Part shown: positions 8,087 to 35,197 of the stretch, piece by piece
Position numbering within the stretch: the first letter of the stretch is position 1
Layout: every line of letters begins with the position of its first letter
Assembly (NCBI RefSeq): GCF_014873755.1
Contig: NZ_JADBEG010000001.1
Location: forward strand, 6,980,501-7,044,500
Direction: 5' to 3'
From: Amycolatopsis lexingtonensis
GTDB taxonomy: Bacteria; Actinomycetota; Actinomycetes; Mycobacteriales; Pseudonocardiaceae
DNA length: 64,000 nt
Program-made: the position numbers and the translations under genes
The notes under the pieces: model-generated
The model's input: only the letters and a program-made list of their open reading frames with translations
The model's database searches: none
Told to the model about the DNA's origin: nothing

Positions 8087-8126
8087 CCTGAACGAGGTCT
8101 CAGCGGGACGGCCCTAGTTTCGGGGC

Positions 8127-9449
8127 ATGGACGAAAGCGCGCGGGCGCACCGGCTCTGCGAGGCGGCCCACTCGGCGTGGAAGGCCGGTGATCCGGCGCG
8201 GGCCCGGCGGCTGCTGGACGTCATGACCCGGACGGTCCGCGAGCCCGTCGCGCGGCCGCTGACCGGGCGGCTGCGCGGGCTGATCGAGCTGTACAGCGGG
8301 AACCTCGCCGCCGCGCAGGACCACCTGACGCGGCTCGCGGACCGGGTCGAACCCGGGCGGGCCGCGAGGCTGCTGTTCCTGGCGATCGACGCCGCGCACC
8401 ACCGCGACCGGTGGGACGACGTCGTCGCGCTGACGCGGCGGATCACCGCGCTGGACTGCGAGCCCGGGTACCACGTCCTGGCCGGGCTGTTCGCCGGCGG
8501 CGAGGTCCCCGATCCGTGGCAGCTCCTCGACGCGGTGCCGGCGTCGCTCACCGAACGGCACGCGCACCGCTGGCTCGTCCCGATGGCGATCAGCCGCCGC
8601 GGGCCGCACCGGCAGGCGACGCGGGAGTTCGGGCTCGTCGCCGCGGAACGGTTGCGCGCCAACGGGCTTCTCGCGCTGTACGCGGTTCTGCTGACGTGGC
8701 TGGCCGAAGTGGAGCTGGACCTGGGCCGCTGGGGCGACGCGCGGGCGCACGCGGAGGAAGCGCTGCGGACCGCCGCCGAGCAGCGCGTGACGTCGGTGGA
8801 CGCGCACGCCGTGCTGGCCCGGCTCGCCGCCCTGCGCGGTGACGCGGAGGCGTGCCGGGAGCACGCGGCGCTCGTGCTGGGGGAAGCACCGGCCCAGGAC
8901 AACGCCTTGGCCGCGGCGCAGGCCCGGTGGGCGCTGGGCTCACTGCACCTCTCGCGCGGTGAGTACGAACCGGCCGTGGAACGGCTCACCTCGCCGGGGC
9001 ACCGGGACGTCGCCGCCGCGGCCGCCCGCGACCGCGCCGAAGCGGCGTCCGGCGGGCTTTCCCTTGTCCCACCCGACGACCGGCCCTTCGAGCGGGCGCG
9101 CGGCAGTCTCCGGCGCGGCCAATCGCTGCGGCGCGACCGCCGCGTCACCGAAGCGAAAGTGGCGCTGCGGACCGCGCTGGAGCTGTTCGAAAGCCTCGGC
9201 GCGGCGGAGTGGGCGGCGACGGCTCGCCGTGAGCTGCGGGCGGCGGGGTCGGCCGCGCCCACCGCCGGGCCGTTGACCGCCCAGGAGCGTCAGGTGGCGG
9301 AGCTGGCCGCGGCGGGGTTGTCCAACCGCGAGATCGGCGCGCGGCTGTTCCTCAGCCCGCGCACCGTCGGCTACCACCTGTACAAGGTGTTCCCGAAGCT
9401 CGGCATCGCCAGCCGGGCGCAGCTACGCGACATCGCCCTGACCGGCTGA
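8127..9449 (+). CDS. LuxR family regulator with helical (TPR-like) N-terminal region
   Basis: 440 residues. The last 60 residues form a LuxR/GerE helix-turn-helix: LTAQERQVAELAAAGLSNRE, then GARLFLSPRTVGYHLYKVF. The N-terminal 370 residues are all-helical and Ala/Leu/Arg-rich with TPR-like periodicity (repeated A..L..L.DRWDD-type units). There is no Walker A motif, so it corresponds to the C-terminal half of a LAL (MalT-like) regulator lacking the ATPase. It is convergent with the TetR gene at 9423 and the two coding ends overlap by 27 bp. Target genes unknown. Confidence 0.88.
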   Translation: MDESARAHRLCEAAHSAWKAGDPARARRLLDVMTRTVREPVARPLTGRLRGLIELYSGNLAAAQDHLTRLADRVEPGRAARLLFLAIDAAHHRDRWDDVVALTRRITALDCEPGYHVLAGLFAGGEVPDPWQLLDAVPASLTERHAHRWLVPMAISRRGPHRQATREFGLVAAERLRANGLLALYAVLLTWLAEVELDLGRWGDARAHAEEALRTAAEQRVTSVDAHAVLARLAALRGDAEACREHAALVLGEAPAQDNALAAAQARWALGSLHLSRGEYEPAVERLTSPGHRDVAAAAARDRAEAASGGLSLVPPDDRPFERARGSLRRGQSLRRDRRVTEAKVALRTALELFESLGAAEWAATARRELRAAGSAAPTAGPLTAQERQVAELAAAGLSNREIGARLFLSPRTVGYHLYKVFPKLGIASRAQLRDIALTG

Positions 9450-20975: not shown

Positions 20976-21590
20976 ATGTCGTGGTCACCGAATCACCCGG
21001 ACTCCGTCGATACCCTCTTCGAGCGCCGGAAGGCCCCGGTGCTCGCCCTGGCCGACGACGCCGGGACGGTCGCGGCGGCGTGCCTCGGCATGGCCCGGCG
21101 CTTCCACCGCGGTGGCAAGCTCGTGGTCTTCGGCAACGGCGGCCCCAGCACCGACGCCCAGCACGTCGCGGTGGAGTTCGTCCACCCGGTGATCGTCGGC
21201 AAGCGCGCGCTGCCCGCGCTCTCGCTGACCGCGGACGTCGCGACGGTCACCGGCGTCGCCAGCCGCGCCGGCCTCGACGACATCTTCGCCCACCAGCTGC
21301 GGATCATCGGCGACCCGGCCGACATCGCGCTCGGCATCTCCACCGACGGCGCGTGCGCGAACGTCCGGCGTGCCCTCGAGACCGCCCGGGACCTCGGCAT
21401 GCTCACCGTCGCGCTGACCGGCGGCGACGGCGGGGCGATCGCCGCGACACCCGGTCTCGACCACGTCCTCGTCGCCCGCTCGACCGACCCGCGCGTAGTC
21501 AAGGAGGTCCACGTGACCACGTACCACGTCCTGTGGGAACTGGTGCACGTCTTCTTCGAGCAACCCGGTCTGCTGGAGGTGGCGTCGTGA
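20976..21590 (+). CDS. SIS-domain protein, GmhA-like, phosphate loop degenerate
   Basis: 204 residues from ATG 20976 (GAGGAAG upstream). The SIS fold resembles sedoheptulose-7-phosphate isomerase GmhA. It keeps the residues equal to GmhA His61 and Glu65 (His63, Glu67 in DAQHVAVEF) and His180 (His184). The phosphate loop that reads STSGNS in GmhA is STDGACAN here, GNGGS is GNGGP, and Gln172 is Lys176. It should therefore bind sugar phosphate poorly alone. It is the first gene of the hydrogenase operon and its stop overlaps the HypC-like start (GTGA). Confidence 0.85.
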   Translation: MSWSPNHPDSVDTLFERRKAPVLALADDAGTVAAACLGMARRFHRGGKLVVFGNGGPSTDAQHVAVEFVHPVIVGKRALPALSLTADVATVTGVASRAGLDDIFAHQLRIIGDPADIALGISTDGACANVRRALETARDLGMLTVALTGGDGGAIAATPGLDHVLVARSTDPRVVKEVHVTTYHVLWELVHVFFEQPGLLEVAS

Positions 21591-21823
21591 ACGCCGATGG
21601 CGCCGACAGACCGGCCGGCCCCGTCTGCCACGACGGGGTGTGCATCACCTGCTCCGACACCGCGGTCGAGGTGACCGTGGTCGAGCTCCTCGAAGACGAG
21701 CTCGCTGTCGTGGACACCGGTTCCACGCGGGAAGAGGTCAGTGTGGCGCTGGTCGAGGCCGGCGTCGGCGACCGCATCCTCGTGCACGCCGGAGAAGCCA
21801 TCGCACGCTTGGAAAAGCGCTAG
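21587..21823 (+). CDS. Divergent HypC/HupF-family hydrogenase chaperone
   Basis: 78 residues from GTG 21587, overlapping the previous stop. The core (EVTVVELLEDELAVVDTGS, GDRILVHAGEAIARL) is HypC-like and keeps the conserved His (67). The usual N-terminal MCLGIP with catalytic Cys2 is replaced by an extended start containing VCHDGVCITCSD with cysteines at 14, 19 and 22. HypC proteins ferry the Fe(CN)2CO unit with HypD to the large subunit. A canonical HypC is encoded at 28669, so this is a specialised paralogue, perhaps dedicated to this hydrogenase or to an Fe-handling step. Confidence 0.8.
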   Translation: MNADGADRPAGPVCHDGVCITCSDTAVEVTVVELLEDELAVVDTGSTREEVSVALVEAGVGDRILVHAGEAIARLEKR

Positions 21824-21839
21824 CCGCGGGAGAGCCGGC

Positions 21840-22523
21840 ATGACGCGGGAACACCCCGTCCCCGACGGCCTCGAGGCGCTGTACCCGTTCCTGTACTCGG
21901 GTGCGAGCGACCTCGACGCCGTCCTCCGCCAGGTCGAACAGTCCACTGTGGACAAGGTGCGCGAGATCGTCGCCCTCCGCGATGAGGTGCTCGCCGCCGA
22001 CCGCGACCGGCTGTTCGCGTGCGCCCAGGACCTGGCGCGCGCGTTCCGCGGCGGCGGCCGGCTGCTCGCCTTCGGCAACGGCGGGAGCTCGACCGACGCC
22101 CAGGACCTCGCCAGCCTCTTCCTCAGCCCGGCCGGCGACGCGCGGCCGTTGCCCGCCTTCGGGCTGACGAACGACATCGCGGTGGTGACGGCCCTGTCCA
22201 ACGACATCGGGTTCGACGTCGTGTTCGCCCGGCAGATCGGCGCGTTCGGCCGGCCCGGCGACATCGCGGTGGGCCTGTCCACCAGCGGGAACTCCGCGAA
22301 CCTGGTGCGCGCCTTCGATGAAGCCGCCCGGCACGGCATGGTGACCGTCGGCATCGCCGGCTACGACGGGGGCAAGATGGCCGAGCTGGACAGCATCGAC
22401 CACCTCTTCGTCGTCCCGTCCCCTTCCGTGCACCGCATCCAGGAAGCCCAGACGACCCTCTACCACGCGCTGTGGGAGCTGACCCTCGGCGCGCTCGACG
22501 ACCCCGGGGGTGCACACCCGTGA
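21840..22523 (+). CDS. SIS-domain protein, GmhA-like, metal-site residues lost
   Basis: 227 residues from ATG 21840. It keeps the sugar-phosphate parts of GmhA: FGNGGSSTDAQ and the loop LSTSGNSAN (147-153), plus Gln201 and His209 (Gln172, His180 in GmhA). The residues equal to His61 and Glu65 are Asp89 and Leu93. This is the mirror of the defects in the SIS protein at 20976. In addition it has a 40-residue helical N-terminal extension. Its stop overlaps the hydrogenase small-subunit start by GTGA, so it is made in step with the enzyme. Confidence 0.85.
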   Translation: MTREHPVPDGLEALYPFLYSGASDLDAVLRQVEQSTVDKVREIVALRDEVLAADRDRLFACAQDLARAFRGGGRLLAFGNGGSSTDAQDLASLFLSPAGDARPLPAFGLTNDIAVVTALSNDIGFDVVFARQIGAFGRPGDIAVGLSTSGNSANLVRAFDEAARHGMVTVGIAGYDGGKMAELDSIDHLFVVPSPSVHRIQEAQTTLYHALWELTLGALDDPGGAHP

Positions 22524-23572
22524 CGCACGCGCAGCAAGAAGAGCAGCCCATCCACATCCTCTGGATCAACGCCGGCCTGTCCTGCGACGGCGACTCCGTC
22601 GCACTGACCGCCGCCACGCAACCGAGCATCGAGGAAATCGTCCTCGGTGCCTTGCCCGGCCTGCCCAAGATCGCGGTCCACTGGCCGTTGATCGACTTCG
22701 AATGCGGCCCCGACAAGGGGGCCGACACGTTCATCGAGTGGTTCCACAAAGCCGACCGCGGCGAGCTGGAGCCGTTCGTGCTGGTCGTCGAGGGCTCGAT
22801 CCCCAACGAGTCGATCAAAGAGGAGGGCTACTGGTGCGGGTTCGGGAACAACCCCGAAACCGGCCAGCCGATGACGACCAGCGAGTGGCTGGACCGCCTG
22901 GCGCCCAAAGCGCTGGCCGTGCTCGCCGCCGGAACCTGCGCCACCTACGGCGGCATCCACGCGATGCAGGGCAACCCGACCGGCGCCATGGGCGTGCCCG
23001 ACTACCTGGGCTGGAACTGGAAGTCCGGGGCCGGCATCCCGATCGTCTGCGTGCCCGGCTGCCCGACCCACCCGGACAACCTGTCCGAGACCATCACCTA
23101 CCTGCTCTACCAGGCCGCCGGGCAGGCGCCGATGATCCCGCTCGACGACCACCTGCGGCCGCAGTGGCTCTTCGGCGCGACCGTGCACGAGGGCTGCGAC
23201 CGCGGCGGCTACTACGAGCAGGGCCAGTTCGCCACGGAGTACGGCTCCCCGAAGTGCCTGGTGAAGCTGGGCTGCTGGGGCCCGGTCGTGAAGTGCAACG
23301 TGCCCAAGCGCGGCTGGATCAACGGCGTCGGCGGCTGCCCGAACGTCGGCGGCATCTGCATCGGCTGCACCATGCCGGGCTTCCCGGACAAGTTCATGCC
23401 GTTCATGGACGAGCCACCCGGTGCGCAGGTGTCCTCCTTCGCCGCCAGCACGTACGGGTCGGTGATCCGCCGCCTGCGGAAGATCACCGAACGCAAGGCC
23501 GACAAAGAGCCCAAGTGGCGGCACAAGGGCGGCAAGCTCGACACCGGCTACCAGGCAGGGACGCGGTCATGA
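22520..23572 (+). CDS. hhyS: [NiFe]-hydrogenase small subunit, group 1h (former group 5)
   Basis: 350 residues from GTG 22520. It carries three iron-sulphur clusters that pass electrons from the active site. The proximal-cluster segment reads GLSCDGDSVAL instead of CTGCSE, so Cys22 and Asp25 stand where two Cys are usual. This Asp ligand is known from the actinobacterial-type hydrogenase of Ralstonia eutropha. Further cluster motifs are AGTCATYGG, VPGCPTHPDN, HEGCDRGGYY, GCPNVGGICIGCTMPGFPD. There is no twin-arginine signal peptide, so the enzyme is probably cytoplasmic-side. It is coupled to the large subunit by ATGA. Confidence 0.95.
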   Translation: MTHAQQEEQPIHILWINAGLSCDGDSVALTAATQPSIEEIVLGALPGLPKIAVHWPLIDFECGPDKGADTFIEWFHKADRGELEPFVLVVEGSIPNESIKEEGYWCGFGNNPETGQPMTTSEWLDRLAPKALAVLAAGTCATYGGIHAMQGNPTGAMGVPDYLGWNWKSGAGIPIVCVPGCPTHPDNLSETITYLLYQAAGQAPMIPLDDHLRPQWLFGATVHEGCDRGGYYEQGQFATEYGSPKCLVKLGCWGPVVKCNVPKRGWINGVGGCPNVGGICIGCTMPGFPDKFMPFMDEPPGAQVSSFAASTYGSVIRRLRKITERKADKEPKWRHKGGKLDTGYQAGTRS

Positions 23573-25341
23573 CGGAGATGAAGGACAAGACCGGCCTCGT
23601 CGAGATGGCGTGGGACCCGATCACCCGGATCGTCGGCAGCCTCGGGATCTACACGAAGATCGACTGGGCGCAGAAGAAGGTCGTGGAGTGCCACAGCACG
23701 TCGTCGGTCTTCCGCGGCTACAGCATCTTCATGAAGGGCAAGGACCCGCGCGACGCGCACTTCATCACCAGCCGGATCTGCGGGATCTGCGGCGACAACC
23801 ACGCGACTTGCTCGGTGTACGCGCAGAACATGGCCTACGGCGTCCGCCCGCCGCACCTCGGAGAGTGGATCCTCAACCTCGGCGAGGCCGCCGAGTACAT
23901 GTTCGACCACAACATCTTCCAGGAGAACCTGGTCGGGGTCGACTACTGCGAGAAGATGGTCGCCGAGACCAACCCCGGTGTCCTGGAGCTGGCCAACCGC
24001 ACCGAAGCACCGCACGCGCGCGACCACGGGTACCGGACCATCGGCGACATCATGCGCTCGCTCAACCCGCTCGAGGGCGAGTTCTACCGCGAGGCCCTGC
24101 AGGTCTCCCGGAGCACGCGCGAGATGTTCTGCCTGATGGAGGGCAGGCACGTCCACCCGTCCACGTTGTACCCCGGCGGCGTCGGCACGGTCGCCACCGT
24201 GCAGCTGTTCACCGACTACCTGACCCGGCTGATGCGCTACGTCGAGTTCATGAAGCGCTGCCTGCCGATGCACGACGACCTCTTCGACTTCTTCTACGAG
24301 GCCCTGCCCGGCTACGAAGAGGTCGGGCGGCGCCGGATCCTGCTCGGCTGCTGGGGCAGCCTCAACGACCCCGAGCACTGCGACTTCAGCTACGAGAACA
24401 TGGAGTCCTGGGGCCGCAAGATGTTCGTGACGCCGGGCATCGTCGTCGACGGCAAGCTCGTCACCACCAGCCTGCTCGACATCAACCTCGGCATCCGGAT
24501 CCTGCTCGGCAGCTCGTTCTACGAGGACTGGGCCGACCAGCCGATGTTCGTCACGCACGACCCGCTCGGCAACCCGGTCGACCAGCGCCACCCCTGGAAC
24601 CAGCACACGATCCCGCGGCCGGCGAAGCGCGACTTCGACGGCAAGTACTCGTGGACGATGTCGCCGCGCTGGTTCGACGGCAAGGACCACCTGGCCCTCG
24701 ACACCGGCGGCGGCCCGATCGCCCGGCTGTGGGTGACCGCGCTGGCCGGCCTCGTCGACACGCCGTACGTGAAGTCGACCGGGCACAGCGTGACGATCAC
24801 CCTGCCGCGCACGGCGACCAAGCCCGAGGTCGGCTTCGAGTGGAAGATCCCGCAGTGGAGCAACGCGCTCGAACGCAACCGCGCGCGGACGTACTTCCAG
24901 GCGTACGCGGCCGCGATGGCGCTGCACTTCGCCGAGCAGGCCCTCGGTGAGGTCCGCCAGGGCAACACGAAGACGTGGGAGCCCTTCAAGGTTCCCGAGG
25001 AGGGCGTGAGCTGCGGCTTCACCGAAGCGGTGCGCGGCGTGCTGTCGCACCACATGGTGATCAAGGGCGGCAAGATCGCGAACTACCACCCGTACCCGCC
25101 GACGCCGTGGAACGGCAGCGTGCGCGACAGCTTCGGCACGCCGGGGCCGTACGAGGACGCCGTGCAGAACACGCCGATCTTCGAGGAGAACACGCAGGAG
25201 AACTTCAAGGGCATCGACATCATGCGCGCGGTCCGCAGCTTCGACCCGTGCCTGCCCTGCGGCGTCCACATGTACACCGGCAAGGGCAAGGTCCTGGAAC
25301 GGCTGCACACCCCGCACGCGTTCGGCGGGGAGCTCGGCTGA
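23569..25341 (+). CDS. hhyL: [NiFe]-hydrogenase large subunit, group 1h
   Basis: 590 residues. It holds the NiFe(CN)2CO active site. L1 motif: TSRICGICGDNHATC with Cys71 and Cys74; L2 motif: DPCLPCGVH with Cys561 and Cys564. A 23-residue extension follows His567 and should be cut by the maturation protease encoded at 28177. The N-terminal motif is TRIVGSLGIY instead of TRIEGHLRIE, so the Glu and His common in other group 1 enzymes are absent. Group 1h enzymes oxidise atmospheric H2 with high affinity and tolerate O2. The stop shares a base with the NifU-domain start. Confidence 0.95.
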   Translation: MTEMKDKTGLVEMAWDPITRIVGSLGIYTKIDWAQKKVVECHSTSSVFRGYSIFMKGKDPRDAHFITSRICGICGDNHATCSVYAQNMAYGVRPPHLGEWILNLGEAAEYMFDHNIFQENLVGVDYCEKMVAETNPGVLELANRTEAPHARDHGYRTIGDIMRSLNPLEGEFYREALQVSRSTREMFCLMEGRHVHPSTLYPGGVGTVATVQLFTDYLTRLMRYVEFMKRCLPMHDDLFDFFYEALPGYEEVGRRRILLGCWGSLNDPEHCDFSYENMESWGRKMFVTPGIVVDGKLVTTSLLDINLGIRILLGSSFYEDWADQPMFVTHDPLGNPVDQRHPWNQHTIPRPAKRDFDGKYSWTMSPRWFDGKDHLALDTGGGPIARLWVTALAGLVDTPYVKSTGHSVTITLPRTATKPEVGFEWKIPQWSNALERNRARTYFQAYAAAMALHFAEQALGEVRQGNTKTWEPFKVPEEGVSCGFTEAVRGVLSHHMVIKGGKIANYHPYPPTPWNGSVRDSFGTPGPYEDAVQNTPIFEENTQENFKGIDIMRAVRSFDPCLPCGVHMYTGKGKVLERLHTPHAFGGELG

Positions 25342-25850
25342 TGACCGAAGTCGACCGGGTCGGCGAGCGCATCGAGCAGCTGCTGGGCGAGTTCTCCGGC
25401 CCGGAGGCCGAGCTCGCCGAGGAACTCGTCCACACGCTGCTCGAGTTCTACGGCGCCGGGCTGGCCCGGATCGTCGAAGCCGTCGACCGGCCGTTGCTCG
25501 ACCGCCTCCTCGAGGACGACCACGTCCGCGGCCTGCTCGTGCTGCACGACCTGCACCCCCGATCGACGCACGAGCGGGTCGCCGAAGCGCTCGACGAGGT
25601 GCGGCCGTACCTGGGTTCGCACGCCGGCGACGTCGAGTTCGTCGGGATCGACGACGGCGTCCTCCGGCTGCGGCTGCAGGGGAGCTGTGACGGCTGCCCG
25701 TCCTCGACGGTCACCGCGAAGTACGCCATCGAGCGCGTGGTCCGGGCGGCGGCACCGGAGATCTCCGACGTCGTCGTCGAAGGGGTGGCCGAAGAAGCCG
25801 GTCCGGGCGGCCGTCCCCTGCTGCCCCTGTGTCCCGTGGAGGTCCCGTGA
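25341..25850 (+). CDS. NifU C-terminal-domain protein
   Basis: 169 residues from ATG 25341, one base overlap with the large-subunit stop. The C-terminal half (about residues 90-150) is a NifU/Nfu domain with the CxxC motif QGSCDGCPSSTVTAKYAIE, which carries a transient [4Fe-4S] cluster. The N-terminal 85 residues are helical and not recognised. It probably supplies or repairs iron-sulphur clusters of the small subunit. Its stop overlaps the next start (GTGA). Confidence 0.88.
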   Translation: MTEVDRVGERIEQLLGEFSGPEAELAEELVHTLLEFYGAGLARIVEAVDRPLLDRLLEDDHVRGLLVLHDLHPRSTHERVAEALDEVRPYLGSHAGDVEFVGIDDGVLRLRLQGSCDGCPSSTVTAKYAIERVVRAAAPEISDVVVEGVAEEAGPGGRPLLPLCPVEVP

Positions 25851-26434
25851 CCGGCGGCCTGCGCAGGTTCCGCACCCGCGCCCCGCGCGCCGCGCCCGGC
25901 GAGAAGTGCGAGCTGTGCGCGGAACCGATCGGTGCCGAGCACGGGCACGTCATCGACCTCGAGTCCCGGACGATCCTGTGCGCCTGCCGGGGCTGCTACC
26001 TGCTCTTCACCCACCGCGGCGCGGGCGGCAAGCGGCACCGCGCGGTGCCGGACCGCGTCCGGCACCTCCCGCGCTTCGAGCCGGGCGCCGCGCTGTGGGC
26101 GTCGGCCGGCATCCCGGTCCGGACGGCGTTCTTGTTCCGGAACTCGGTGCAGGACCGCGTCGTCGCGTTCTACCCGAGTCCGGCGGGTGCGACGGAGTCC
26201 CTGCTGCCGCTGGGCACGGGCGACGACCTGCTCGCCGACGTCGCCGACGACGTCGAAGCACTCCTGGTCAACCAGCTCGACGACGACTTCGAGGGGTTCC
26301 TGGTGCCGATCGACGTCTGCTACGAGCTGGTCGGGCTCGTCCGGACGACCTGGCGCGGCTTCGACGGCGGCACCGAAGCCCATGAGGCCATCGACGGGTT
26401 CTTCGCTCGGTTGCGGGAGCGCGGCGATGGCTGA
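25847..26434 (+). CDS. Hydrogenase-associated DUF5947-type protein with Cys-rich start
   Basis: 195 residues from GTG 25847. The N-terminal third has CELCAEPIG and CACRGCYLLF, five cysteines that could bind Zn or Fe in a rubredoxin- or zinc-ribbon-like way. The rest is alpha/beta (WASAGIPVRTAFLFRNS, DRVVAFYPSPAGATESLL) and I do not recognise its fold. I recall the family as DUF5947, found next to group 1h hydrogenases. Function unknown; assembly chaperone or electron carrier are both possible. It overlaps the next gene by 8 bp. Confidence 0.75.
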   Translation: MTGGLRRFRTRAPRAAPGEKCELCAEPIGAEHGHVIDLESRTILCACRGCYLLFTHRGAGGKRHRAVPDRVRHLPRFEPGAALWASAGIPVRTAFLFRNSVQDRVVAFYPSPAGATESLLPLGTGDDLLADVADDVEALLVNQLDDDFEGFLVPIDVCYELVGLVRTTWRGFDGGTEAHEAIDGFFARLRERGDG

Positions 26435-27056
26435 GCTGACCTTCGACTGCATCGACGTCCGGCCGCTGAAGTACGCCGCCTCCCCCACACTCGCGTTCAA
26501 ACTGCGGATCTCCGAGCTGAGCGGGCAGCCCGTGCACGCGATGGTGCTGCGCGTCCAGATCCGCATCGAGCCGCAGCGCCGCCGGTACGCCGACGACGAG
26601 TCGGAGCTGCTCACCCACCTCTTCGGCGACCGGTCCCGGTGGGGCGAGACGCTGAAGCCGTTCCAGTTCACGACCGTGTCGGTGACCGTGCCGGGGTTCA
26701 CCGGTGCCACCGAGGTCGACGCCGAAGTGCCGTGCACCTACGACCTCGAAGTCGCGGCGGGCAAGTACTTCCACGCGCTGTCCGAGGGCGTCGTGCCGAT
26801 GGTGCTGCTGTTCAGCGGGACCGTGTTCGGCAAGGGCGGGCCGGGGTTCTGGGTCGAGCAGGTGCCGTGGCACACGCAGGCCGAGTGCCGGATGCCGGTG
26901 GCCGTCTGGGACGAGCTGATGACCCGCTACTTCCCGAACGCCGCGTGGATCAAGCTGCCGCGCGAGACGGTCGACGCGCTGCTCAAGTACAAGGCGCGGC
27001 ACGCGATCCCGACCTGGGAAGCCGCGATCGACAAGCTGCTGGCCGGTGAACCGTGA
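26427..27056 (+). CDS. Hydrogenase-associated DUF6084-type protein
   Basis: 209 residues from ATG 26427. The sequence is beta-rich at the start (ELTFDCIDVRPLKYAASPTL), with an internal segment DLEVAAGKYFHALSEGVVPM and a helical C-terminus (VDALLKYKARHAIPTW). There is no cofactor motif, signal peptide or membrane segment. I recall it as DUF6084, restricted to group 1h hydrogenase loci. It is translationally linked to both neighbours by short overlaps, implying fixed stoichiometry with them. Role unknown. Confidence 0.72.
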   Translation: MAELTFDCIDVRPLKYAASPTLAFKLRISELSGQPVHAMVLRVQIRIEPQRRRYADDESELLTHLFGDRSRWGETLKPFQFTTVSVTVPGFTGATEVDAEVPCTYDLEVAAGKYFHALSEGVVPMVLLFSGTVFGKGGPGFWVEQVPWHTQAECRMPVAVWDELMTRYFPNAAWIKLPRETVDALLKYKARHAIPTWEAAIDKLLAGEP

Positions 27057-28180
27057 ACGTTCTCGAGCAGGCCCGCGCGGTCGGTGACGCCGTGCTCTAC
27101 GAGGGCTACCTCCTCTACCCGTACCGGGCGTCGGCGCCGAAGAACCGCGTGCGCTGGCAGTGGGGCGTGCTGATGCCGCCGTCGTACGCGTCGGCGGAGA
27201 TCGGCGAGCACGCGTCGGCACGCGTCGAGTGCGTCGTCGAGCCGCTGGAACGCACGATCCTGCGCGTCAAGCTGCGGTTCCTGCGGGCCGAGGCACGCGC
27301 CACGGCGGACGAAGGCGTCGAGCACGAGATCGACTTCGAGCTGCCGCTTTCGGAACTGCCCGCCGAGAAGCCGTTCGACGTGCACGAACTGTCCGGCGTC
27401 CTGACCGCCCGGGTCGACCCGCTCGACGGGCCGTTCGGCGGCGCCCGGCTGCGCGTCGAGGTGCACAACACGACGTCGTGGCACTCGGACGGCGTCCGCG
27501 AGCACGCCCTGCGGCACGCGCTGCTCGCCGCCCACCTCGTGCTCAGCGTCGACACCGGGCACTTCCTGTCCATGCTGGACCCGCCGGAGTGGGCGAAACC
27601 GGCGGTCGAGGCCTGCCGGCAGGAGCGGCTCTGGCCGGTGCTGATCGGCGACACCTCGCGCAGCACGGTAGTGCTCGCGTCCCCGATCATCCTCTACGAC
27701 GACCCGGCGATCGCCCCGGAAAGCCCGGGCGACCTCTTCGACGGCACCGAAATCGACGAGATCCTCACCTTGCGCACGATGACGCTGACCGACGAGGAGA
27801 AGCGCGAGGCCCGGGCCACCGACCCGCGCGCGGCGGCGATCGTGGACCGCGTCGACGCGATGCCGCCGGAGCTGCTGGAGCGGCTGCACGGCGCGGTCCG
27901 GTCCGTCCGGCCGGTCGAGCCTTCGGTGGTCGTCGCCGGTGTCCGCGTGGCCGAGGGGTCCCGCGTGCGCCTGCGGCCGAACCTGCGCGGCACCGACGCG
28001 CAGGACATGTTCCTCACCGGCCGGACCGCCACCGTGCGCACGGTGCTGTCCGATGTGGACGGCGGCACGCACGTCGCGGTCACCCTCGACGACGACCCCG
28101 GCGCCGACCTGCAGCACGCGCAGGGCCGGTACCGGTACTTCTCCCCCGACGAGATCGAACCCTTGGAGGTCGCGGAATGA
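27053..28180 (+). CDS. Hydrogenase-associated protein of unknown function
   Basis: 375 residues from GTG 27053 (GTGA overlap upstream). Four parts are visible: a short N-terminal VLYEGYLLYPYRASAPKNRV segment typical of this conserved hydrogenase-locus family, a beta-rich middle (about 40-175), a helical stretch DEEKREARATDPRAAAIVDR (about 245-265), and a C-terminal SH3-like beta barrel (GSRVRLRPNLRG to YRYFSPDEIEPL, about 300-370). No catalytic motif is seen. Its place just before the maturation protease suggests a role in assembly or in docking of the hydrogenase. Confidence 0.72.
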   Translation: MNVLEQARAVGDAVLYEGYLLYPYRASAPKNRVRWQWGVLMPPSYASAEIGEHASARVECVVEPLERTILRVKLRFLRAEARATADEGVEHEIDFELPLSELPAEKPFDVHELSGVLTARVDPLDGPFGGARLRVEVHNTTSWHSDGVREHALRHALLAAHLVLSVDTGHFLSMLDPPEWAKPAVEACRQERLWPVLIGDTSRSTVVLASPIILYDDPAIAPESPGDLFDGTEIDEILTLRTMTLTDEEKREARATDPRAAAIVDRVDAMPPELLERLHGAVRSVRPVEPSVVVAGVRVAEGSRVRLRPNLRGTDAQDMFLTGRTATVRTVLSDVDGGTHVAVTLDDDPGADLQHAQGRYRYFSPDEIEPLEVAE

Positions 28181-28665
28181 GGCCACGAGTACTGGTCGCC
28201 GGCATCGGCAACATCTTCCTGGGCGACGACGGTTTCGGCGTCGAAGTCATCAAGGAGCTGGAGCAGGCCGATCTGCCGCCCTGGGTGCAGATCGCCGACT
28301 ACGGCATCGCCGGCATGCACCTCGCCTACGACCTGATGGGCGGCTACGACACGACGATCCTGCTCGACGCGACCCCGCACGGCCGCCCGCCCGGCACGCT
28401 CTCGCTGATCGAAGCCGACACCGAGGACCTGGCGGCGTCGGCGTCGATCGACGCGCACGGCATGCGGCCGGACGCGGTGTTCCGGCTGCTCAGGTTGCTC
28501 GGCGGCGACGCCGGGCGCGTGCTGCTCGTCGGCTGCGAACCGGCGTGCCTCGACGAAGGGATCGGGTTGTCGCCCGAAGTGACCGCGGCCGTCCCGGCGG
28601 CCGTCCGTGCGGTCACCGAACTCGCCTGGGGAACCAGTCCGCAGCTGCAAACCACGGAGGTCTGA
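28177..28665 (+). CDS. [NiFe]-hydrogenase maturation protease (HupD/HybD family)
   Basis: 162 residues from ATG 28177 (ATGA overlap). The N-terminus VLVAGIGNIFLGDDGFGVEV is the family signature, with the first Ni ligand Glu near residue 23. The next ligands are Asp in LLDATPHG and His in DAHGM. It senses Ni in the precursor large subunit and cuts after His567 of HhyL, releasing the 23-residue tail so the active site can close. Length matches the family. Confidence 0.93.
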   Translation: MRPRVLVAGIGNIFLGDDGFGVEVIKELEQADLPPWVQIADYGIAGMHLAYDLMGGYDTTILLDATPHGRPPGTLSLIEADTEDLAASASIDAHGMRPDAVFRLLRLLGGDAGRVLLVGCEPACLDEGIGLSPEVTAAVPAAVRAVTELAWGTSPQLQTTEV

Positions 28666-30077: not shown

Positions 30078-31150
30078 CCACCACCGAGCGCGAGCAGCAG
30101 GTCCTCGACCGCATCGAGCGGGCCCGACGCCGGCGCGCGAAGGTCCGCGAAGAGCGCATCACGCTGTCCCACGGCGCGGGCGGCAAGTCGACGCACACGC
30201 TGATCGAGGCGGTGTTCCTCGACGCGTTCCGCAACCCACTGCTGGAACCCCTCGAAGACGCGGCGACGCTGACCATCGGGGACGCCCGCCTGGCACTGAC
30301 CACGGACTCCTACGTCGTCTCACCGCTGTTCTTCCCCGGCGGCAACATCGGCGACCTGGCCGTGAACGGCACGGTGAACGACCTCGCGGTGTCCGGCGCG
30401 CGGCCGCTGTACCTGACCGCGGGGTTCATCCTCGAGGAAGGCTTCCCGGTCGAGGACCTGCTCAAGATCGTCGACTCGATGAGGTCCGCGGCCCTCGCGG
30501 CCGGCGTGCAGATCGTCACCGGCGACACCAAGGTCGTCGAGCGCGGCAAGGCCGACGGCGTGTACGTCAACACCGCCGGGGTCGGCGTGCTCACGCGCAC
30601 CGGCCTGGGCGTGGCCACCGTGAAGCCCGGAGACGCCGTCCTCGTTTCCGGGCCGATCGGCGACCACGGCGTCACGATCATGCTGGCCCGCGGCGAGCTC
30701 GACATCGACGCCGACCTGGTGTCCGACACCGCACCGGTGCACGAGCTGGTCGCCGGGCTGCTGGCCGCGGCGCCCGGCGTGCGCGCGATGCGGGACGCGA
30801 CCCGCGGCGGCGTCGCGACGATCCTCAACGAGATCGCGAAGGCCGCCGAGGTCGCCGTGGTCGTCGACGAGAAGGCCGTCCCGGTGCGCGAACAGGTCCG
30901 CGGCGCGTCGGAGCTGCTGGGCATCGACCCGCTGTACGTCGCGTGCGAAGGCCGGATCGTGGTCGTCGTGGACGGCGCCCAGGCCGGCGACGCGCTGGCC
31001 GCGTTGCGGGCCCACCCGCTCGGCGCGGACGCCGCCGTGATCGGACGGATCGCGGACGACCCGCCGGGGATCGTGCTGCTGAACACCGCGTTCGGCGGCA
31101 CGCGGATCGTGGACCTGCTGGTCGGGGACCCGCTGCCGAGGATCTGCTGA
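30074..31150 (+). CDS. hypE: HypE, carbamoyl dehydratase
   Basis: 358 residues. PurM-like ATP-binding fold: ITLSHGAGGKSTHTLI, LAVNGTVNDLAVSGARPLYL, RDATRGGVATILNEIA. It ends with the diagnostic PRIC, whose C-terminal Cys is carbamoylated by HypF and dehydrated to the cyanide ligand. The N-terminus has about 25 extra basic/helical residues compared with E. coli HypE. It overlaps hypD and is followed immediately by hypA. Confidence 0.96.
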   Translation: MTTTEREQQVLDRIERARRRRAKVREERITLSHGAGGKSTHTLIEAVFLDAFRNPLLEPLEDAATLTIGDARLALTTDSYVVSPLFFPGGNIGDLAVNGTVNDLAVSGARPLYLTAGFILEEGFPVEDLLKIVDSMRSAALAAGVQIVTGDTKVVERGKADGVYVNTAGVGVLTRTGLGVATVKPGDAVLVSGPIGDHGVTIMLARGELDIDADLVSDTAPVHELVAGLLAAAPGVRAMRDATRGGVATILNEIAKAAEVAVVVDEKAVPVREQVRGASELLGIDPLYVACEGRIVVVVDGAQAGDALAALRAHPLGADAAVIGRIADDPPGIVLLNTAFGGTRIVDLLVGDPLPRIC

Positions 31151-31486
31151 ATGCACGAGATGGCGATCACGCAGTCGGTGGTCGACGCGATCGTCGCCAA
31201 GCTGGGCGACGCGACGGTGACGAGCGTGCAGCTGGAGATCGGGCGGCTGTCCGGCGTGGTGCCCGACAGCGTCCGCTTCTGCTTCGACGTCCTCTGTGCC
31301 GGAACCTCCCTGGCAGGGGCCCGGCTCGACATCGCCGAGCCCGCGGGCCGGGCGCGCTGCCGCGACTGCGGCGAAGAGTTCGGCCTCGACGACTTCATCC
31401 TGCTGTGCCCCTGCGGCAGCGCCGACGTCTCGGTGCTCGCCGGACGCGAACTGCGCATCACTTCAGTGGAGGTCAGCGATGTGTGA
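31151..31486 (+). CDS. hypA: HypA, nickel-insertion metallochaperone
   Basis: 111 residues. It begins MHEMAITQSVV with the Ni-binding His2-Glu3, and has the Zn-binding cysteines in RARCRDCGEEF and LLCPCGSAD; the second pair is CxC rather than CxxC. With HypB it loads Ni into the large subunit. It starts directly after hypE and overlaps hypB by 8 bp. Confidence 0.94.
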   Translation: MHEMAITQSVVDAIVAKLGDATVTSVQLEIGRLSGVVPDSVRFCFDVLCAGTSLAGARLDIAEPAGRARCRDCGEEFGLDDFILLCPCGSADVSVLAGRELRITSVEVSDV

Positions 31487-32174
31487 CACGTGCGGCTGCT
31501 CCGATTCGGAGGTCCGGATCACCGACCACGCCCACACGGTGGTGCTGGAGCAGGACATCCTGGCGAAGAACGACGAACTCGCGGCGCACAACCGCGCGCA
31601 CCTGAGCGAGTCCGGCGTCTTCGCGATCAACCTGATGAGCTCGCCCGGCGCCGGGAAGACGACACTGCTGGAACGGACGATCCGGGCTTCGGACACGCCG
31701 TGCGCGGTGATCGAAGGCGACCAGGAGACCTTGCTCGACGCCGAGCGCATCAAGGCGACCGGCGCGCCGGTGGTGCAGATCAACACCGGCGCGGGCTGTC
31801 ACCTGGACGCGTCGATGCTGCACCGGGCACTGCATTCGCTGAGTCTCTCGCCCGGCTCGACGTTGTTCATCGAGAACGTCGGCAACCTGGTCTGCCCGGC
31901 GCTGTTCGACCTCGGCGAGGCGGCCCGCGTGGTGATCCTCTCGGTGACCGAGGGGCCGGGGAAGCCGTTGAAGTACCCGCACATGTTCGCCGCCACGGAC
32001 TTGGTGCTGCTCAACAAGGTCGACCTGCTGCCCTACGTCGACTTCGACGTCGCCGAGTTCGAGCGGGACGTCCGCCGGGTGAACCCGTCGGCGGGGCTGG
32101 TGCAGGTCAGCGCGACCCGCGGCGACGGCCTCACCGAGTGGTACGACTGGCTACGGCGACCTGTCCGAAGCTGA
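31479..32174 (+). CDS. hypB: HypB, nickel-insertion GTPase
   Basis: 231 residues. N-terminal high-affinity metal motif MCDTCGC (Cys2, 5, 7), P-loop MSSPGAGKTTLL, metal-dimer site TGAGCHLDASM, GTPase motifs IENVGNLVCP and LLNKVDLLPY. It lacks the long His-rich tract of some homologues, so it should act as a GTPase rather than a Ni store. It ends the rightward operon and overlaps the convergent hypF by 44 bp. Confidence 0.95.
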   Translation: MCDTCGCSDSEVRITDHAHTVVLEQDILAKNDELAAHNRAHLSESGVFAINLMSSPGAGKTTLLERTIRASDTPCAVIEGDQETLLDAERIKATGAPVVQINTGAGCHLDASMLHRALHSLSLSPGSTLFIENVGNLVCPALFDLGEAARVVILSVTEGPGKPLKYPHMFAATDLVLLNKVDLLPYVDFDVAEFERDVRRVNPSAGLVQVSATRGDGLTEWYDWLRRPVRS

Positions 32175-34281
32175 TCCCGCCGTCGTTGCACGGGACGTCC
32201 CGGTGGGTCAGGACGCGGAAACCCTCTCGTTCCAGGGATTCCACGGTCCGGTCCAGCAGGAGGACGTTCTGGAAGACGCCACCGGAGAGCGCGACCGTCG
32301 TGCTGTGGTCGCGGAAGCGGTCGCAGGTCCGCGCGATCGCGTCGGCGACGCCGTTGTGGAACCGGGCGGCTCTCGTCGCGTTGCGGCTTCGGTCGTCCAA
32401 GAGAGCGGCGATGAGGTCCTCGCCGTGGACGACGTCGTCGATCCGCGCGCGGTAGGCGGTGGTTTCGCCCGGGTCGGCCAGCTGTTCCAGCTCGATGGCG
32501 GCCTGGCCTTCGTAGGTAATGGCGTCCCGGACGCCGAGCAGCGCGGCCGCGGCGTCGAAAAGGCGCCCGGCACTGGAGGTCAGGGGTGAGTTGAGGCCGC
32601 TGCGCTTCAGCTTGACGATGTCTTCCCGCGCCGGCCGGCCCAGTTCGTCCACATAGGACGCCGCCATCCGCCACGGCTGCTTGATCGCCATCACGCCGCC
32701 CGGCATGGCGACCGGCCGCAGGTGGCTCAGCCGCTGGTAGCCGGTGAGGTCGGCGAGCAGGAACTCGCCGCCCCAGATCGTGCCGTCGGGCCCGAAGCCG
32801 GTGCCGTCGAAGGCGACGCCGAGCACCGGGCCGTCCTCGCCGTTGTCGGCCAGGCACGCGGCGATGTGCGCGTGGTGGTGCTGCACGCCGAGCAGGTCGA
32901 CGTCGAGGTCGAGCGCGTACTTCGTGGACAGGTACTCGGGATGCAGGTCGTGCGCGACGAGCACCGGGTCGATGGCGAAGAGGCGCTTGAAGTGCTCGAT
33001 GCCTTCGGTGAAGGACTTGAGCGTTTCGTAGTTCTCCAGGTCGCCGATGTGGTGCGAGAGGAAGGCGTGCCGTCCCTTGGCGAGGCAGAAGGTGTTCTTG
33101 AGTTCGGCGCCGCAGCCGAGCAGGTGCTGCTTCGTCTCGAGCTGGACCGGCTCGGGCGCGTAGCCGCGTGAACGCCGCTGGACCTGCGGTCCACCGCGCG
33201 TGATCCGCACGACGGAGTCGTCGGTCCTGGTGTGGATCGGCCGGTCGTGGCCGAGGAAGGCATCGGCGATGTCCTTGAGGCGGTCCAGGTCTTCGTCGCG
33301 GTACACGATCGGCTCGTCGGAGACGTTCGCGCTGGTCAGCACGATCGGCCCGGTGTGCTCCAGCAGGAGGTGGTGCAGCGGGGTGTAGGGCAGCATGACC
33401 CCGATCCGCCGGTTCCCCGGCGCGACGGCCCGGGCGAGTTCGGCTTTCTTCGGCAGCAGCACGATGGGCCGCCGCCGGCTCGTGAGCGCTTCTTCGGCCG
33501 CTGTGTCCACTTCGGCCAGTTCCCGGGCCTGCGCCAGATCGGCGACCATGACGGCGAACGGCTTGTCCTCACGGTGTTTTCTCGTGCGCAGGCGCTCGGC
33601 CGCTTCCTCGCTTCGCGCGTCGACGGCGAGGTGGTAACCGCCGAGCCCCTTGATCGCGACCACCTGTCCCCCGCGCAGGGCTTCGACGGCCGCCGCGATC
33701 GGGTCTCCGCCACCGGGCCGGAACTCGAGCGACGGCCCACACGCCGGGCAGCAGACGGGCTGGGCGTGGAACCGCCGGTCTTCGGGGTCTTCGTACTCTT
33801 GCTTGCACTCGGCGCACATCGCGAAGCCGGCCATGGTGGTGAGCGGCCGGTCGTAGGGCACGCCCCGGACGATGGTGAACCGCGGCCCGCAGTTCGTGCA
33901 GTTGACGAAGGGGTACCGGAACCGCCGGTCCGCGGGGTCGCGCAGCTCACGCAGGCAGTCGTCGCAGGTGGCGGAGTCGGCCGAGACGAGCGTGTCGGCG
34001 GCGCCACCGGACGGGCTGGCGACGATGACGAACCCGGTGCCGCCGGCCGCCGGGATCTCCCGCGCCTCGACCCGGTCGACGACCGCCAGCGGCGGCGCTT
34101 CGGCCGTCAACGCTTCGACGAAGGCCGCCACCCGCGACGGCGGTCCTTCGGCCTCGGCGAAGACGCCGTGCCCGTCGTTCCCGACGAACCCGGCGAGCCC
34201 CAGCCGCACCGCCAGCCGGTGGGCGAACGGCCGGAACCCGACGCCCTGCACCACTCCGGCGACGCTGATCGCGACACGCAT
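32131..34281 (-). CDS. hypF: HypF, carbamoyltransferase
   Basis: 716 residues. Domains in order: acylphosphatase (VQGVGFRPFAHRLAVRLGL, residues 10-90), paired zinc fingers (CDDCLRELRDPADRRFRYPF, CxxC repeats, about 105-180), YrdC-like (about 200-370), and Kae1/HypF-type transferase with LGCGAELKNTFCLAKG and VQHHHAHIAACLADN. It makes the thiocarbamate on HypE from carbamoyl phosphate. It is on the strand opposite to the rest of the hyp genes, 4 bp behind the LysR stop, and overlaps hypB at the 3' end. Confidence 0.95.
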   Translation of the reverse strand: MRVAISVAGVVQGVGFRPFAHRLAVRLGLAGFVGNDGHGVFAEAEGPPSRVAAFVEALTAEAPPLAVVDRVEAREIPAAGGTGFVIVASPSGGAADTLVSADSATCDDCLRELRDPADRRFRYPFVNCTNCGPRFTIVRGVPYDRPLTTMAGFAMCAECKQEYEDPEDRRFHAQPVCCPACGPSLEFRPGGGDPIAAAVEALRGGQVVAIKGLGGYHLAVDARSEEAAERLRTRKHREDKPFAVMVADLAQARELAEVDTAAEEALTSRRRPIVLLPKKAELARAVAPGNRRIGVMLPYTPLHHLLLEHTGPIVLTSANVSDEPIVYRDEDLDRLKDIADAFLGHDRPIHTRTDDSVVRITRGGPQVQRRSRGYAPEPVQLETKQHLLGCGAELKNTFCLAKGRHAFLSHHIGDLENYETLKSFTEGIEHFKRLFAIDPVLVAHDLHPEYLSTKYALDLDVDLLGVQHHHAHIAACLADNGEDGPVLGVAFDGTGFGPDGTIWGGEFLLADLTGYQRLSHLRPVAMPGGVMAIKQPWRMAASYVDELGRPAREDIVKLKRSGLNSPLTSSAGRLFDAAAALLGVRDAITYEGQAAIELEQLADPGETTAYRARIDDVVHGEDLIAALLDDRSRNATRAARFHNGVADAIARTCDRFRDHSTTVALSGGVFQNVLLLDRTVESLEREGFRVLTHRDVPCNDGGISFGQVAVASRTTR

Positions 34282-34285
34282 CCGG

Positions 34286-35197
34286 TCAGTCTGCGCCCCC
34301 GCCGGCCCAGGCGGCCAGCCCCGGCAGATCGGGTGGCTGCCGGAGCGCGTCGAGCACGACGTTCACCCCCGCGCGCAACGGTGTTCCCCGGCGGACCACC
34401 GCCGTGATCGTGCGGGTCACCGGGGTCGACAGCTCGCGCGTCGCGACCCGGTAGCGGCGGTCGACCGCCAGGCCCGGCAGGAGCGCGATCGACAGCCCGG
34501 CCTCGACGTGCTGCAGCGTCATCAGGTAGTTGCTGAAGCGGCACACCACCCGCGGCTCGAAACCCGACTCGCGGCACAGGCGCAGCGTCAGGTTCGCCAT
34601 GTACGACTGCGGCACGTCCAGCGCCCACCGCGCGTCCGCGTAGGCCGACAGGACCGCCGGGCCGCGGGGTGCGTCCGGCGGGGTGACCAGCACGATCGGG
34701 TCCGTCGCCAGCGGGACGATGTCGAGGTCCGGGCCCAGCGGCTGCTCGACGAAGTCGGTCGTGGTGATGATGACGTCGGCGTCGCCGCCGCGCAGGGCCG
34801 GGATGCTCTCGTGCGGCTCCAGCTCCAGCAGCTGGACCTCGAGGTGCGGGTGCGCCAGCCGGGTCACCGCCGGCACGGCGAGGGTGTGGATCGCGCTCTG
34901 GAACGCGCCGAGCCGGACCAGGCCGGCCGGTTCGCCGCCGAGGCTGCGCAGCTCCGCCTCGACGGTGTCCATGTGGTCGAGGATCGCCCGCGCGCGGCGG
35001 GCCAGCACCAGCCCGGCCGGGGTCAGCCGGACCCGTCGGCCGGTGCGTTCCAGCAGCTGGGTGCGGGTTTCCGCTTCGAGCACCGCGAGCTGCTGCGACA
35101 CGCTGGACGCGCTCAGGTTGGCGTCCTGCGCCACCGCGCGGACCGTGCCCAGGGTGTCGAGCCGGCTCAGCAGCCGCAGGCGCCACGGGTTCAGCAT
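34286..35197 (-). CDS. LysR family regulator, DgdR-like by context
   Basis: 303 residues from ATG 35197. Winged helix-turn-helix: WRLRLLSRLDTLGTVRAVAQ, LSASSVSQQLAVLEAETRTQ, then the LysR substrate-binding domain (residues 90-300). It is divergent from a dialkylglycine-decarboxylase-like gene, as dgdR is from dgdA in Burkholderia cepacia, and probably controls it. The stop is only 4 bp upstream of hypF, so it may share a transcript with hypF. Confidence 0.88.
   Translation of the reverse strand: MLNPWRLRLLSRLDTLGTVRAVAQDANLSASSVSQQLAVLEAETRTQLLERTGRRVRLTPAGLVLARRARAILDHMDTVEAELRSLGGEPAGLVRLGAFQSAIHTLAVPAVTRLAHPHLEVQLLELEPHESIPALRGGDADVIITTTDFVEQPLGPDLDIVPLATDPIVLVTPPDAPRGPAVLSAYADARWALDVPQSYMANLTLRLCRESGFEPRVVCRFSNYLMTLQHVEAGLSIALLPGLAVDRRYRVATRELSTPVTRTITAVVRRGTPLRAGVNVVLDALRQPPDLPGLAAWAGGGAD

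What the first reader, a model, noticed from the sequence alone, without database searches (positions are those of the whole stretch)
20976..22523. Two GmhA-like SIS proteins with complementary active-site losses head the hydrogenase operon
Aligning by eye to E. coli GmhA: the first SIS protein keeps the metal-site pair (His63, Glu67 for His61, Glu65) but has lost the phosphate loop (STDGACAN for STSGNSAN) and Gln172 (Lys176). The second keeps the phosphate loop and Gln201, but has Asp89 and Leu93 in place of His61 and Glu65. Both keep the late His (184, 209). GmhA sites lie between subunits, so a heteromer could rebuild one full site. They flank an odd HypC-like gene and are coupled to the small subunit, hinting at a sugar-phosphate step in active-site ligand or cofactor supply, or at a non-catalytic scaffold.
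Basis: partly seen in the sequence, partly recalled or inferred. Interest (0 to 1): 0.78.

Follow-up and report, generated by a model that had tools for sequence, protein, structure and literature searches.

The report
Split isomerase pair in hydrogenase maturation
Two neighbouring genes at the head of a hydrogen-oxidising enzyme's operon look like two halves of one enzyme: each has lost active-site residues that the other keeps, which points to an unrecognised helper enzyme in building the hydrogenase's metal centre.

Summary
Every stated residue is confirmed. SIS1 (20976-21590) keeps the GmhA metal side (His63, Glu67, His184). SIS2 (21840-22523) keeps the phosphate loop and Gln201. In GmhA, His61, Glu65 and the late His come from one subunit and the Gln from its neighbour (PMC5387315 passage), so a SIS1:SIS2 interface could rebuild one site. 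Across sampled relatives His61/Glu65 stand in 147 of 147 SIS1-type and 0 of 151 SIS2-type domains; eight loop/Gln positions in 151 of 151 SIS2-type domains. The two are fused in Thermus-type proteins and in 25 of 41 further actinobacterial loci; mycobacteria fuse SIS1 to the HypC-like protein. Proteobacterial hyp loci carry one SIS gene with all four metal ligands (6 of 6). The tree fits one duplication with complementary loss. SIS-linked HypDs form one lineage, HypX-linked ones lie outside; in streptomycete-type loci hypX often takes the slot upstream of the small subunit. I conclude an obligate heteromeric isomerase-like enzyme of Fe(CN)2CO assembly. CO-ligand supply is the favoured, unproven role: 27 of 55 group 1h genomes have neither strong SIS2 nor HypX, and this genome has an orphan hypX.

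The parts
20976..21590 (+). SIS1, 204 aa: GmhA-like; keeps metal-side residues His63, Glu67, His184; phosphate loop and Gln altered (STDGACAN, Lys176)
21587..21823 (+). HypC-like protein (HypC'), 78 aa, GTG start overlapping SIS1 stop; Cys14, Cys19, Cys22 and His67, no Met-Cys start
   Evidence: PF01455 41.2 bits; below TIGR00074 cut-off; motif in 76-78 of 78 relatives
21840..22523 (+). SIS2, 227 aa: GmhA-like; keeps phosphate loop STSGNS and Gln201; metal-side His/Glu replaced by Asp89/Leu93
22520..23572 (+). group 1h-type hydrogenase small subunit, start overlaps SIS2 stop
   Evidence: PF14720, PF01058; 69% identical to the Cupriavidus necator homologue
23569..25341 (+). group 1h-type hydrogenase large subunit (RICGIC at residue 69, DPCLPCG at 559)
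   Evidence: PF00374; motifs
25341..28180 (+). NifU-domain protein, DUF5947, DUF6084 and a further gene that recurs in group 1h loci
28189..28578 (+). hydrogenase maturation protease (matched stretch)
   Evidence: tblastn, 47% identity
28669..28941 (+). canonical HypC
   Evidence: PF01455 89.2 bits
28950..30056 (+). HypD of the SIS-linked lineage (matched stretch)
   Evidence: HypD tree
30158..32153 (+). HypE, HypA, HypB (matched stretches 30158-31147, 31151-31477, 31524-32153)
32149..34293 (-). HypF (matched stretch)

Best explanation
SIS1 and SIS2 form an obligate heteromer (probably a tetramer of two each, by analogy with GmhA). Only one of its two kinds of inter-subunit pocket is an active site: SIS1 gives the metal ligands His63, Glu67 and His184, SIS2 gives Gln201 and the phosphate-binding loop. 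The reciprocal pocket is dead. It acts as a metal-dependent phosphosugar isomerase-type (enediol-forming) enzyme, probably on a substrate other than sedoheptulose 7-phosphate, together with HypC', in the Hyp route that builds Fe(CN)2CO on HypC-HypD. The step I think most likely is provision of the precursor of the CO ligand, i.e. the part that HypX plays in other aerobic hyp systems. Shown by sequence: the residue partition, the fusions, a tree that fits one duplication, linkage to hyp genes and to one HypD lineage. Inferred: heteromer, metal, isomerase chemistry, CO. I put the composite-site maturation enzyme at about 0.7 and the CO step alone at about 0.3.
For: Residues: His61 and Glu65 147 of 147, His180 146 of 147 (one gap) in SIS1-type domains, entropy 0.00; eight loop/Gln positions 151 of 151 in SIS2-type domains, entropy 0.00; SIS2-type has 0 of 151 for His61 and for Glu65; seven of SIS1's eight loop-side columns are more variable than its median column. 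SIS2's own late His, which would sit in the dead pocket, drifts (139 of 151). Zinc ligands come from two monomers in gonococcal GmhA (PMC5387315 passage); Glu and Gln come from different monomers in a modelled M. tuberculosis tetramer (PMC7705670 passages). Fusions SIS1-SIS2 with the domains contiguous and SIS1-HypC'. One SIS gene with all four metal ligands in the hyp loci of six proteobacterial records. Tree: SIS1 and SIS2 each one clade, sisters if rooted on GmhA/DiaA. HypD lineage. HypX in the same slot in 9 of 14 HypX-bearing streptomycete-type genomes, and at none of 80 SIS loci within their flanks. AlphaFold2 model of the Thermus-type fusion: pLDDT 85.6, pTM 0.86.
Against: No heteromer structure or distance was obtained. 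SIS1 is not uniformly stripped: in the 76 paired rows Asn52 (62) and Ser119 (73) mostly stay, and in fusions its Gln172 position is still Gln (51 of 71). Of 55 group 1h genomes, 27 had neither a strong SIS2 nor HypX, so the module is not needed by every group 1h enzyme. The window's own genome holds a HypX homologue at 3.28 Mb, without hyp genes in the 20 kb fetched; G406 and G091 have both. 8 of 43 genomes with the SIS-type HypD showed no SIS match. SIS and HypX sit with different HypD lineages, so mutual exclusion may be descent rather than function. Two Frankia-like loci keep HypC' without SIS, and Octadecabacter and Azospirillum loci in the SIS-type HypD clade lack SIS. Nothing here shows the substrate, the metal or CO production.
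Confidence: 0.7

Rival explanations
1. The heteromer is an enzyme of hydrogenase maturation, but it serves another step than CO: for example it makes or removes a sugar-phosphate effector, or protects or repairs the HypCD scaffold under oxygen. (This shares the composite-site claim of the best explanation and differs only in the step.)
For: Catalytic residues and hyp linkage are as strong for any maturation step; 27 of 55 group 1h genomes do without both strong SIS2 and HypX.
Against: HypX occupies the same slot in 9 of 14 streptomycete-type genomes that have it, and no SIS locus examined carried HypX nearby.
Confidence: 0.4
2. Non-catalytic scaffold, like DiaA, which uses the same fold to bind other proteins.
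For: DiaA is a close structural relative and has lost Glu65, Ser121 and His180; each of SIS1 and SIS2 taken alone is catalytically incomplete.
Against: Together the pair keeps the metal ligands and the loop positions at zero entropy, on the two sides that meet in GmhA; a scaffold gives no reason for that.
Confidence: 0.1
3. Metal-binding or sugar-phosphate-sensing accessory (iron or zinc delivery, or a switch), using the composite pocket without turnover.
For: The pocket keeps a metal site and a phosphate loop; the HypC-like partner carries three conserved Cys.
Against: Proteobacterial single-gene versions keep the catalytic set of an enzyme, apart from Ala for Ser124 in Methylocystis.
Confidence: 0.1
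4. Ordinary heptose-pathway GmhA genes that happen to sit in the operon.
For: Best structural hits are GmhA, and some sources name relatives D-sedoheptulose 7-phosphate isomerase.
Against: Both score far below the gmhA equivalog cut-off; Arg69 and Asp169 of GmhA are replaced; neighbours are hyp or hydrogenase genes from Thermus to Proteobacteria.
Confidence: 0.03

Closest known systems
GmhA, D-sedoheptulose 7-phosphate isomerase
   Same: SIS_2 fold; the metal ligands and phosphate-loop residues are all present when SIS1 and SIS2 are added together
   Different: Residues are split over two proteins; Arg69 is Pro and Asp169 is His or Pro on the loop-side subunit; scores below the NCBIfam gmhA cut-off; lies in hydrogenase maturation loci
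DiaA, DnaA initiator-associating protein
   Same: Same fold, catalytically altered GmhA relative
   Different: DiaA has Ser, Arg and Asn at Glu65, Ser121 and His180 in its only chain; the SIS pair conserves these in trans
HypX, formyl-CoA-based CO supply for aerobic hydrogenase maturation
   Same: Accessory gene of aerobic hyp loci; often occupies the slot just upstream of the group 1h small subunit in streptomycete-type loci
   Different: Unrelated domains (formyltransferase plus enoyl-CoA hydratase)
HypC/HupF chaperones (for HypC')
   Same: PF01455 domain, conserved His
   Different: No Met-Cys start; a Cys-x4-Cys-x-Thr-Cys motif instead; fused to SIS1 in mycobacteria
Single hyp-linked SIS gene of Cupriavidus, Bradyrhizobium, Afipia and others
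   Same: Sits between hypC (or hypF) and hypD; same Pro69/His169 signature as window SIS2
   Different: One gene holding all four metal ligands; no HypC' seen beside it in the six records

Membership tests
GmhA | Score above the NCBIfam gmhA equivalog cut-off (209.45 bits) | tested here: not met
   123.7 and 130.6 bits
GmhA | Complete metal site and phosphate loop in one chain | tested here: not met
   Split between SIS1 and SIS2
GmhA | Arg69 and Asp169 (role in sugar binding recalled, not from a call) | tested here: not met
   Pro69 in nearly all rows; position 169 is His or Pro in all 151 SIS2-type domains and His in 6 of 6 single-gene forms
GmhA | Isomerises sedoheptulose 7-phosphate | not testable with these tools
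   needs enzyme assay
GmhA | SIS_2 fold | tested here: met
   PF13580 54.1 and 63.4 bits; Foldseek of the Thermus-type fusion model to GmhA chains, TMt about 0.84
DiaA | Score above the NCBIfam DiaA cut-off (352 bits) | tested here: not met
   85.5 and 90.2 bits
HypX | Formyltransferase and enoyl-CoA hydratase domains | tested here: not met
   Pfam finds only SIS domains in SIS1 and SIS2; HypX itself shows PF00551 and PF00378
HypX | Supplies CO to HypCD | not testable with these tools
   needs CO rescue and labelling
HypC (for HypC') | HupF_HypC domain | tested here: met
   41.2 bits, cut-off 28.5
HypC (for HypC') | NCBIfam hypC_hupF subfamily cut-off (48 bits) | tested here: not met
   23.7 bits
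HypC (for HypC') | Met-Cys2 start and the conserved His | tested here: inconclusive
   Start absent, but Cys19 aligns with HypC Cys2 and His67 is 78 of 78
group 1h [NiFe] hydrogenase operon | Small and large subunits, NifU-domain protein, DUF5947, DUF6084 | tested here: met
   assignment to group 1h rests on similarity to the C. necator and actinobacterial loci, no classifier was run

The most novel reading that the evidence does not exclude
The SIS module (a split, composite-site relative of GmhA, with HypC' as its dedicated carrier) is a second aerobic source of the CO ligand of [NiFe] hydrogenases, unrelated to HypX: it releases or activates a one-carbon carbonyl from a phosphosugar and hands it to HypC-HypD. 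It would explain how atmospheric H2 oxidisers without HypX mature their enzyme in air.
Probability: 0.28. Interest if true: 0.95.

Novelty: new variant of a known kind. Interest (0 to 1): 0.78.

Why it matters
[quoted passage not shown] a word search of its main text found no 'SIS', 'GmhA' or 'sugar' (PMC12134894, passages). hypX is 'not always present' in high-affinity H2 oxidisers (PMC4767420 passage). A conserved enzyme-like module inside such hyp loci makes the question testable by one deletion and one gas addition. Independently, the pair is an unusually clean case of duplication followed by complementary loss that turns one homomeric active site into an apparently obligate heteromeric one, kept in split and fused forms across phyla.

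Tried and rejected
Heptose biosynthesis was rejected on score, signature residues and context. Exclusion of SIS and HypX by genome was weak: 14 with strong SIS2 (E<1e-40), 16 with HypX, 2 with both, 27 with neither of 55 (14 further genomes had only weaker SIS matches at E<=1e-15). It holds by locus in what was examined but is confounded by HypD lineage. A lysine-acid salt bridge filling the dead pocket fits the paired type (SIS1 Lys with SIS2 Asp or Glu in 68 of 76) but not the fusions, which have Gln with Asp; left as a side idea. Foldseek of the fusion model gave GmhA on one half and tandem-SIS GlmS/GFAT over the whole length at TM about 0.6 with rmsd over 5, which does not settle the interface. 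Pfam does not see SIS1 in the mycobacterial SIS1-HypC' fusion; the alignment does. Paper searches listed no account of a split site or of a role; most subscription journals are not held. A term look-up in the HypX structure paper PMC6802093 returned nothing.

Rows dropped before counts: of 80 SIS1 rows, L013 and L062 (SIS1 has His and Glu, but its frame runs on into SIS2), L050 (cut by the contig end) and L034 (SIS1 off the contig). Of loci brought, duplicates, the window's own, the truncated L149 and the GmhA-like L150-L163 were left out of the 41; 30 of 120 listed fusions were aligned. The 80 loci were found with exact peptides of window SIS2 that cover the Ser55, Asp61, Asp94 and Gln172 positions, so those columns are favoured in that set; the 41 came by similarity to window SIS2 or to profile A2 (one, L123, with the HypD search), the 30 by shared words with the Thermus fusion. 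The HypD tree took every third genome contigs locus with HypD. One HypD fragment (G236) was skipped between the two HypD score classes.

Full report
Observation. SIS1 is 20976-21590, the HypC-like gene 21587-21823, SIS2 21840-22523, the small subunit starts at 22520 and the large subunit at 23569. SIS1/HypC', SIS2/small subunit and small/large subunit each overlap by four bases. All named residues are correct. Both proteins pass PF13580 and align with solved GmhA and DiaA chains, but score 123.7 and 130.6 bits against a gmhA equivalog cut-off of 209.45. The window lies in a 10.7-Mb genome on one contig; the nearest relatives found for SIS2 are Amycolatopsis (95% identity).

Geometry. In gonococcal GmhA the zinc is bound by His61, Glu65 and His183 of one monomer and Gln175 of the neighbour (PMC5387315, passage). 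In a modelled M. [quoted passage not shown] In B. pseudomallei GmhA mutation of any of the four ligands reduces activity (PMC5705639, passages). So a metal side (E. coli His61, Glu65, His180) and a loop side (Asn52, Ser55, Asp94, Ser119, Thr120, Ser121, Ser124, Gln172) meet across an interface. Putting Asn52, Ser55 and Asp94 on the loop side is my reading of these passages and of neighbouring positions.

Test on orthologues. A scan of species genomes with SIS2 gave 379 relatives, 80 kept, all actinobacterial. SIS1, HypC' and SIS2 lie side by side in 78 of these 80 loci; the exceptions are L013 (no HypC') and L034 (contig begins inside SIS2). SIS2-type domains have each of the eight loop-side residues in 151 of 151, and His61 and Glu65 in 0 of 151. 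Column entropies are 0.00 for the kept side in each protein; for the lost side they are 1.29 to 2.82 bits in SIS1 (median column 1.47) and 0.51 to 1.57 in SIS2 (median 1.20). The loss in SIS1 is not uniform: in the 76 paired rows Ser55 is left in 6, Ser121 in 0, Ser124 in 2 and Gln172 in 0, while Asn52 (62) and Ser119 (73) mostly stay; in the other 71 (41 loci and 30 fused proteins) Gln172 is still Gln in 51 although the loop is mostly gone. SIS2's late His, which in this geometry belongs to the dead pocket, is the least strict: 139 of 151, with Tyr in eight mycobacterial-type pairs. Dropped rows and the ascertainment of the 80 loci are told under Tried and rejected.

Fusions. Thermus plasmid pTHTHE1601 encodes SIS1 and SIS2 as one 392-residue protein near hypC, a HypC', hypD and hypE. 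In the 30 aligned, the split is the same. Of the 41 unnamed-genome loci 25 are fused, with the two domains contiguous and no HypC' between, and one Amycolatopsis has its own in-frame fusion with HypC' gone (L013). In mycobacteria SIS1 is instead fused to HypC'; 119 of the 120 listed relatives carry the HypC domain. The three genes thus behave as one module. An AlphaFold2 model of the Thermus-type fusion from 30 sequences has mean pLDDT 85.6 and pTM 0.86; distances could not be measured.

Origin. Cupriavidus, Bradyrhizobium, Mesorhizobium, Afipia and Sphingopyxis carry one SIS gene between hypC and hypD, Methylocystis one between hypF and hypD. Each has all four metal ligands (6 of 6) and the loop residues, except Ala for Ser124 in Methylocystis. 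In a tree of 98 domains SIS1 (41 rows), SIS2 (41), the single-gene form (6) and GmhA/DiaA/other (10) are each one side of a branch; rooted on the last, SIS1 and SIS2 are sisters (which warns of long branches among GmhA and DiaA). One duplication, complementary loss and later fusions or splits are the simplest reading. GmhA's Arg69 is Pro in nearly all hyp-linked domains and Asp169 is His or Pro on the loop-side subunit, so a different substrate is likely; that these two residues touch the sugar is recalled.

Context and function. Of 296 genomes of the class, 55 carry the group 1h large subunit. HypX occurs in 16, strong SIS2 (E<1e-40) in 14, both in 2 (G000, G406), neither in 27. On the large subunit's contig and within 15 kb of it HypX lies in 12 and SIS2 in 12, never both. 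In 9 of these 14 about 1.3 kb, room for the small subunit, separates HypX from the large subunit; in 3 HypX is about 8 kb away, in 1 about 200 kb, in 1 on another contig. The fetched L168 and L169 and the named Kitasatospora NBC_00039 show hypX directly upstream of the small subunit: the slot of SIS1-HypC'-SIS2 in the window. None of the 80 SIS loci, nor the eight plasmid SIS loci, holds HypX within its flanks. On plasmids HypX was found in 42 records; in the 9 that also show a listed hyp-linked SIS gene (7 Bradyrhizobium, 2 Cupriavidus) the two are at least 54 kb apart (40 of 62 SIS records were listed). Among phylum-wide genomes, 43 with HypD over 490 bits had a SIS match at E<=1e-25 in 35, within 15 kb on the HypD contig in 26; 37 with 372-432 bits had 7 matches, none within 15 kb; HypX was in 2 of 43 and 3 of 37. 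71 further HypD-positive genomes were not searched. In a quick HypD tree of 66 rows all 51 SIS-linked HypDs fall in one clade of 55 (SH-aLRT 92) with four SIS-less members; the seven HypX-linked HypDs lie outside it in two groups. Large subunits over 80% identical are thus accompanied by two different Hyp sets, one with HypX, one with SIS.

Reading. A pair that keeps the catalytic positions, in trans, at zero entropy, and that travels with HypC, HypD and a HypC paralogue, is best read as a heteromeric enzyme of Fe(CN)2CO assembly. HypX's place in the other set suggests CO supply. Against this stand the 27 genomes with neither, SIS-less members inside the SIS-type HypD clade, the orphan HypX in this genome (L166, no hyp genes in the 20 kb fetched) and the lineage confound. 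HypX homologues also occur away from hydrogenase genes, as in Mycetohabitans, so the orphan may be unrelated.

Literature. A SIS or gmhA gene near these hydrogenases has been listed without a role: a figure legend on acidobacterial group 1h loci (PMC5900883), a neighbourhood table (PMC12727194), MSMEG_2706 among M. smegmatis hyp genes in a microarray table (PMC5445863), and a computed HypD-HypE-GmhA association called not well understood, though for a GmhA gene of Clostridium (PMC3231954). I saw passages only. None of my searches listed a report of the split site.

Noticed in passing
G000:C1:3282048-3283697 (locus L166): The window's genome has an orphan HypX homologue (46% identity) with no hyp or hydrogenase genes found in the 20 kb fetched; by eye the neighbours include a multicopper-oxidase-like gene and regulators.
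   Followed up: partly
L170 and L171, just upstream of the small subunit: Two unnamed (I guess Frankia-like) group 1h loci keep HypC' but have no SIS genes beside it, so HypC' can persist alone.
   Followed up: partly
21626-21658 in the window; L001-L080: HypC' carries an almost invariant Cys-x4-Cys-x-Thr-Cys-x-Asp motif in place of the HypC Met-Cys start; a possible metal or Fe(CN)2CO site.
   Followed up: partly
SIS1 residues 70-81 in the window: SIS1 proteins share a conserved HPxIVGKRALPA stretch after the metal helix, where GmhA has a mobile active-site loop; two basic residues could be a new substrate clamp.
   Followed up: no
L013 about 7401-8618: Amycolatopsis alkalitolerans has lost HypC' and fused SIS1 to SIS2 in frame, apparently an independent fusion.
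   Followed up: yes
L089 8446-13200: The Thermus hyp cluster adds a glutaredoxin-like (Uxx-star) protein and a PIG-L deacetylase around the SIS fusion and HypF.
   Followed up: no
plasmid records: The group 1h small subunit is annotated in several public records as 'hydrogenase expression protein HypE', a misleading name.
   Followed up: no
L211 6001-7755 (Mycetohabitans): A HypX homologue sits near acyl carrier protein and acyltransferase genes, with no hydrogenase gene in the 13.7 kb shown.
   Followed up: no
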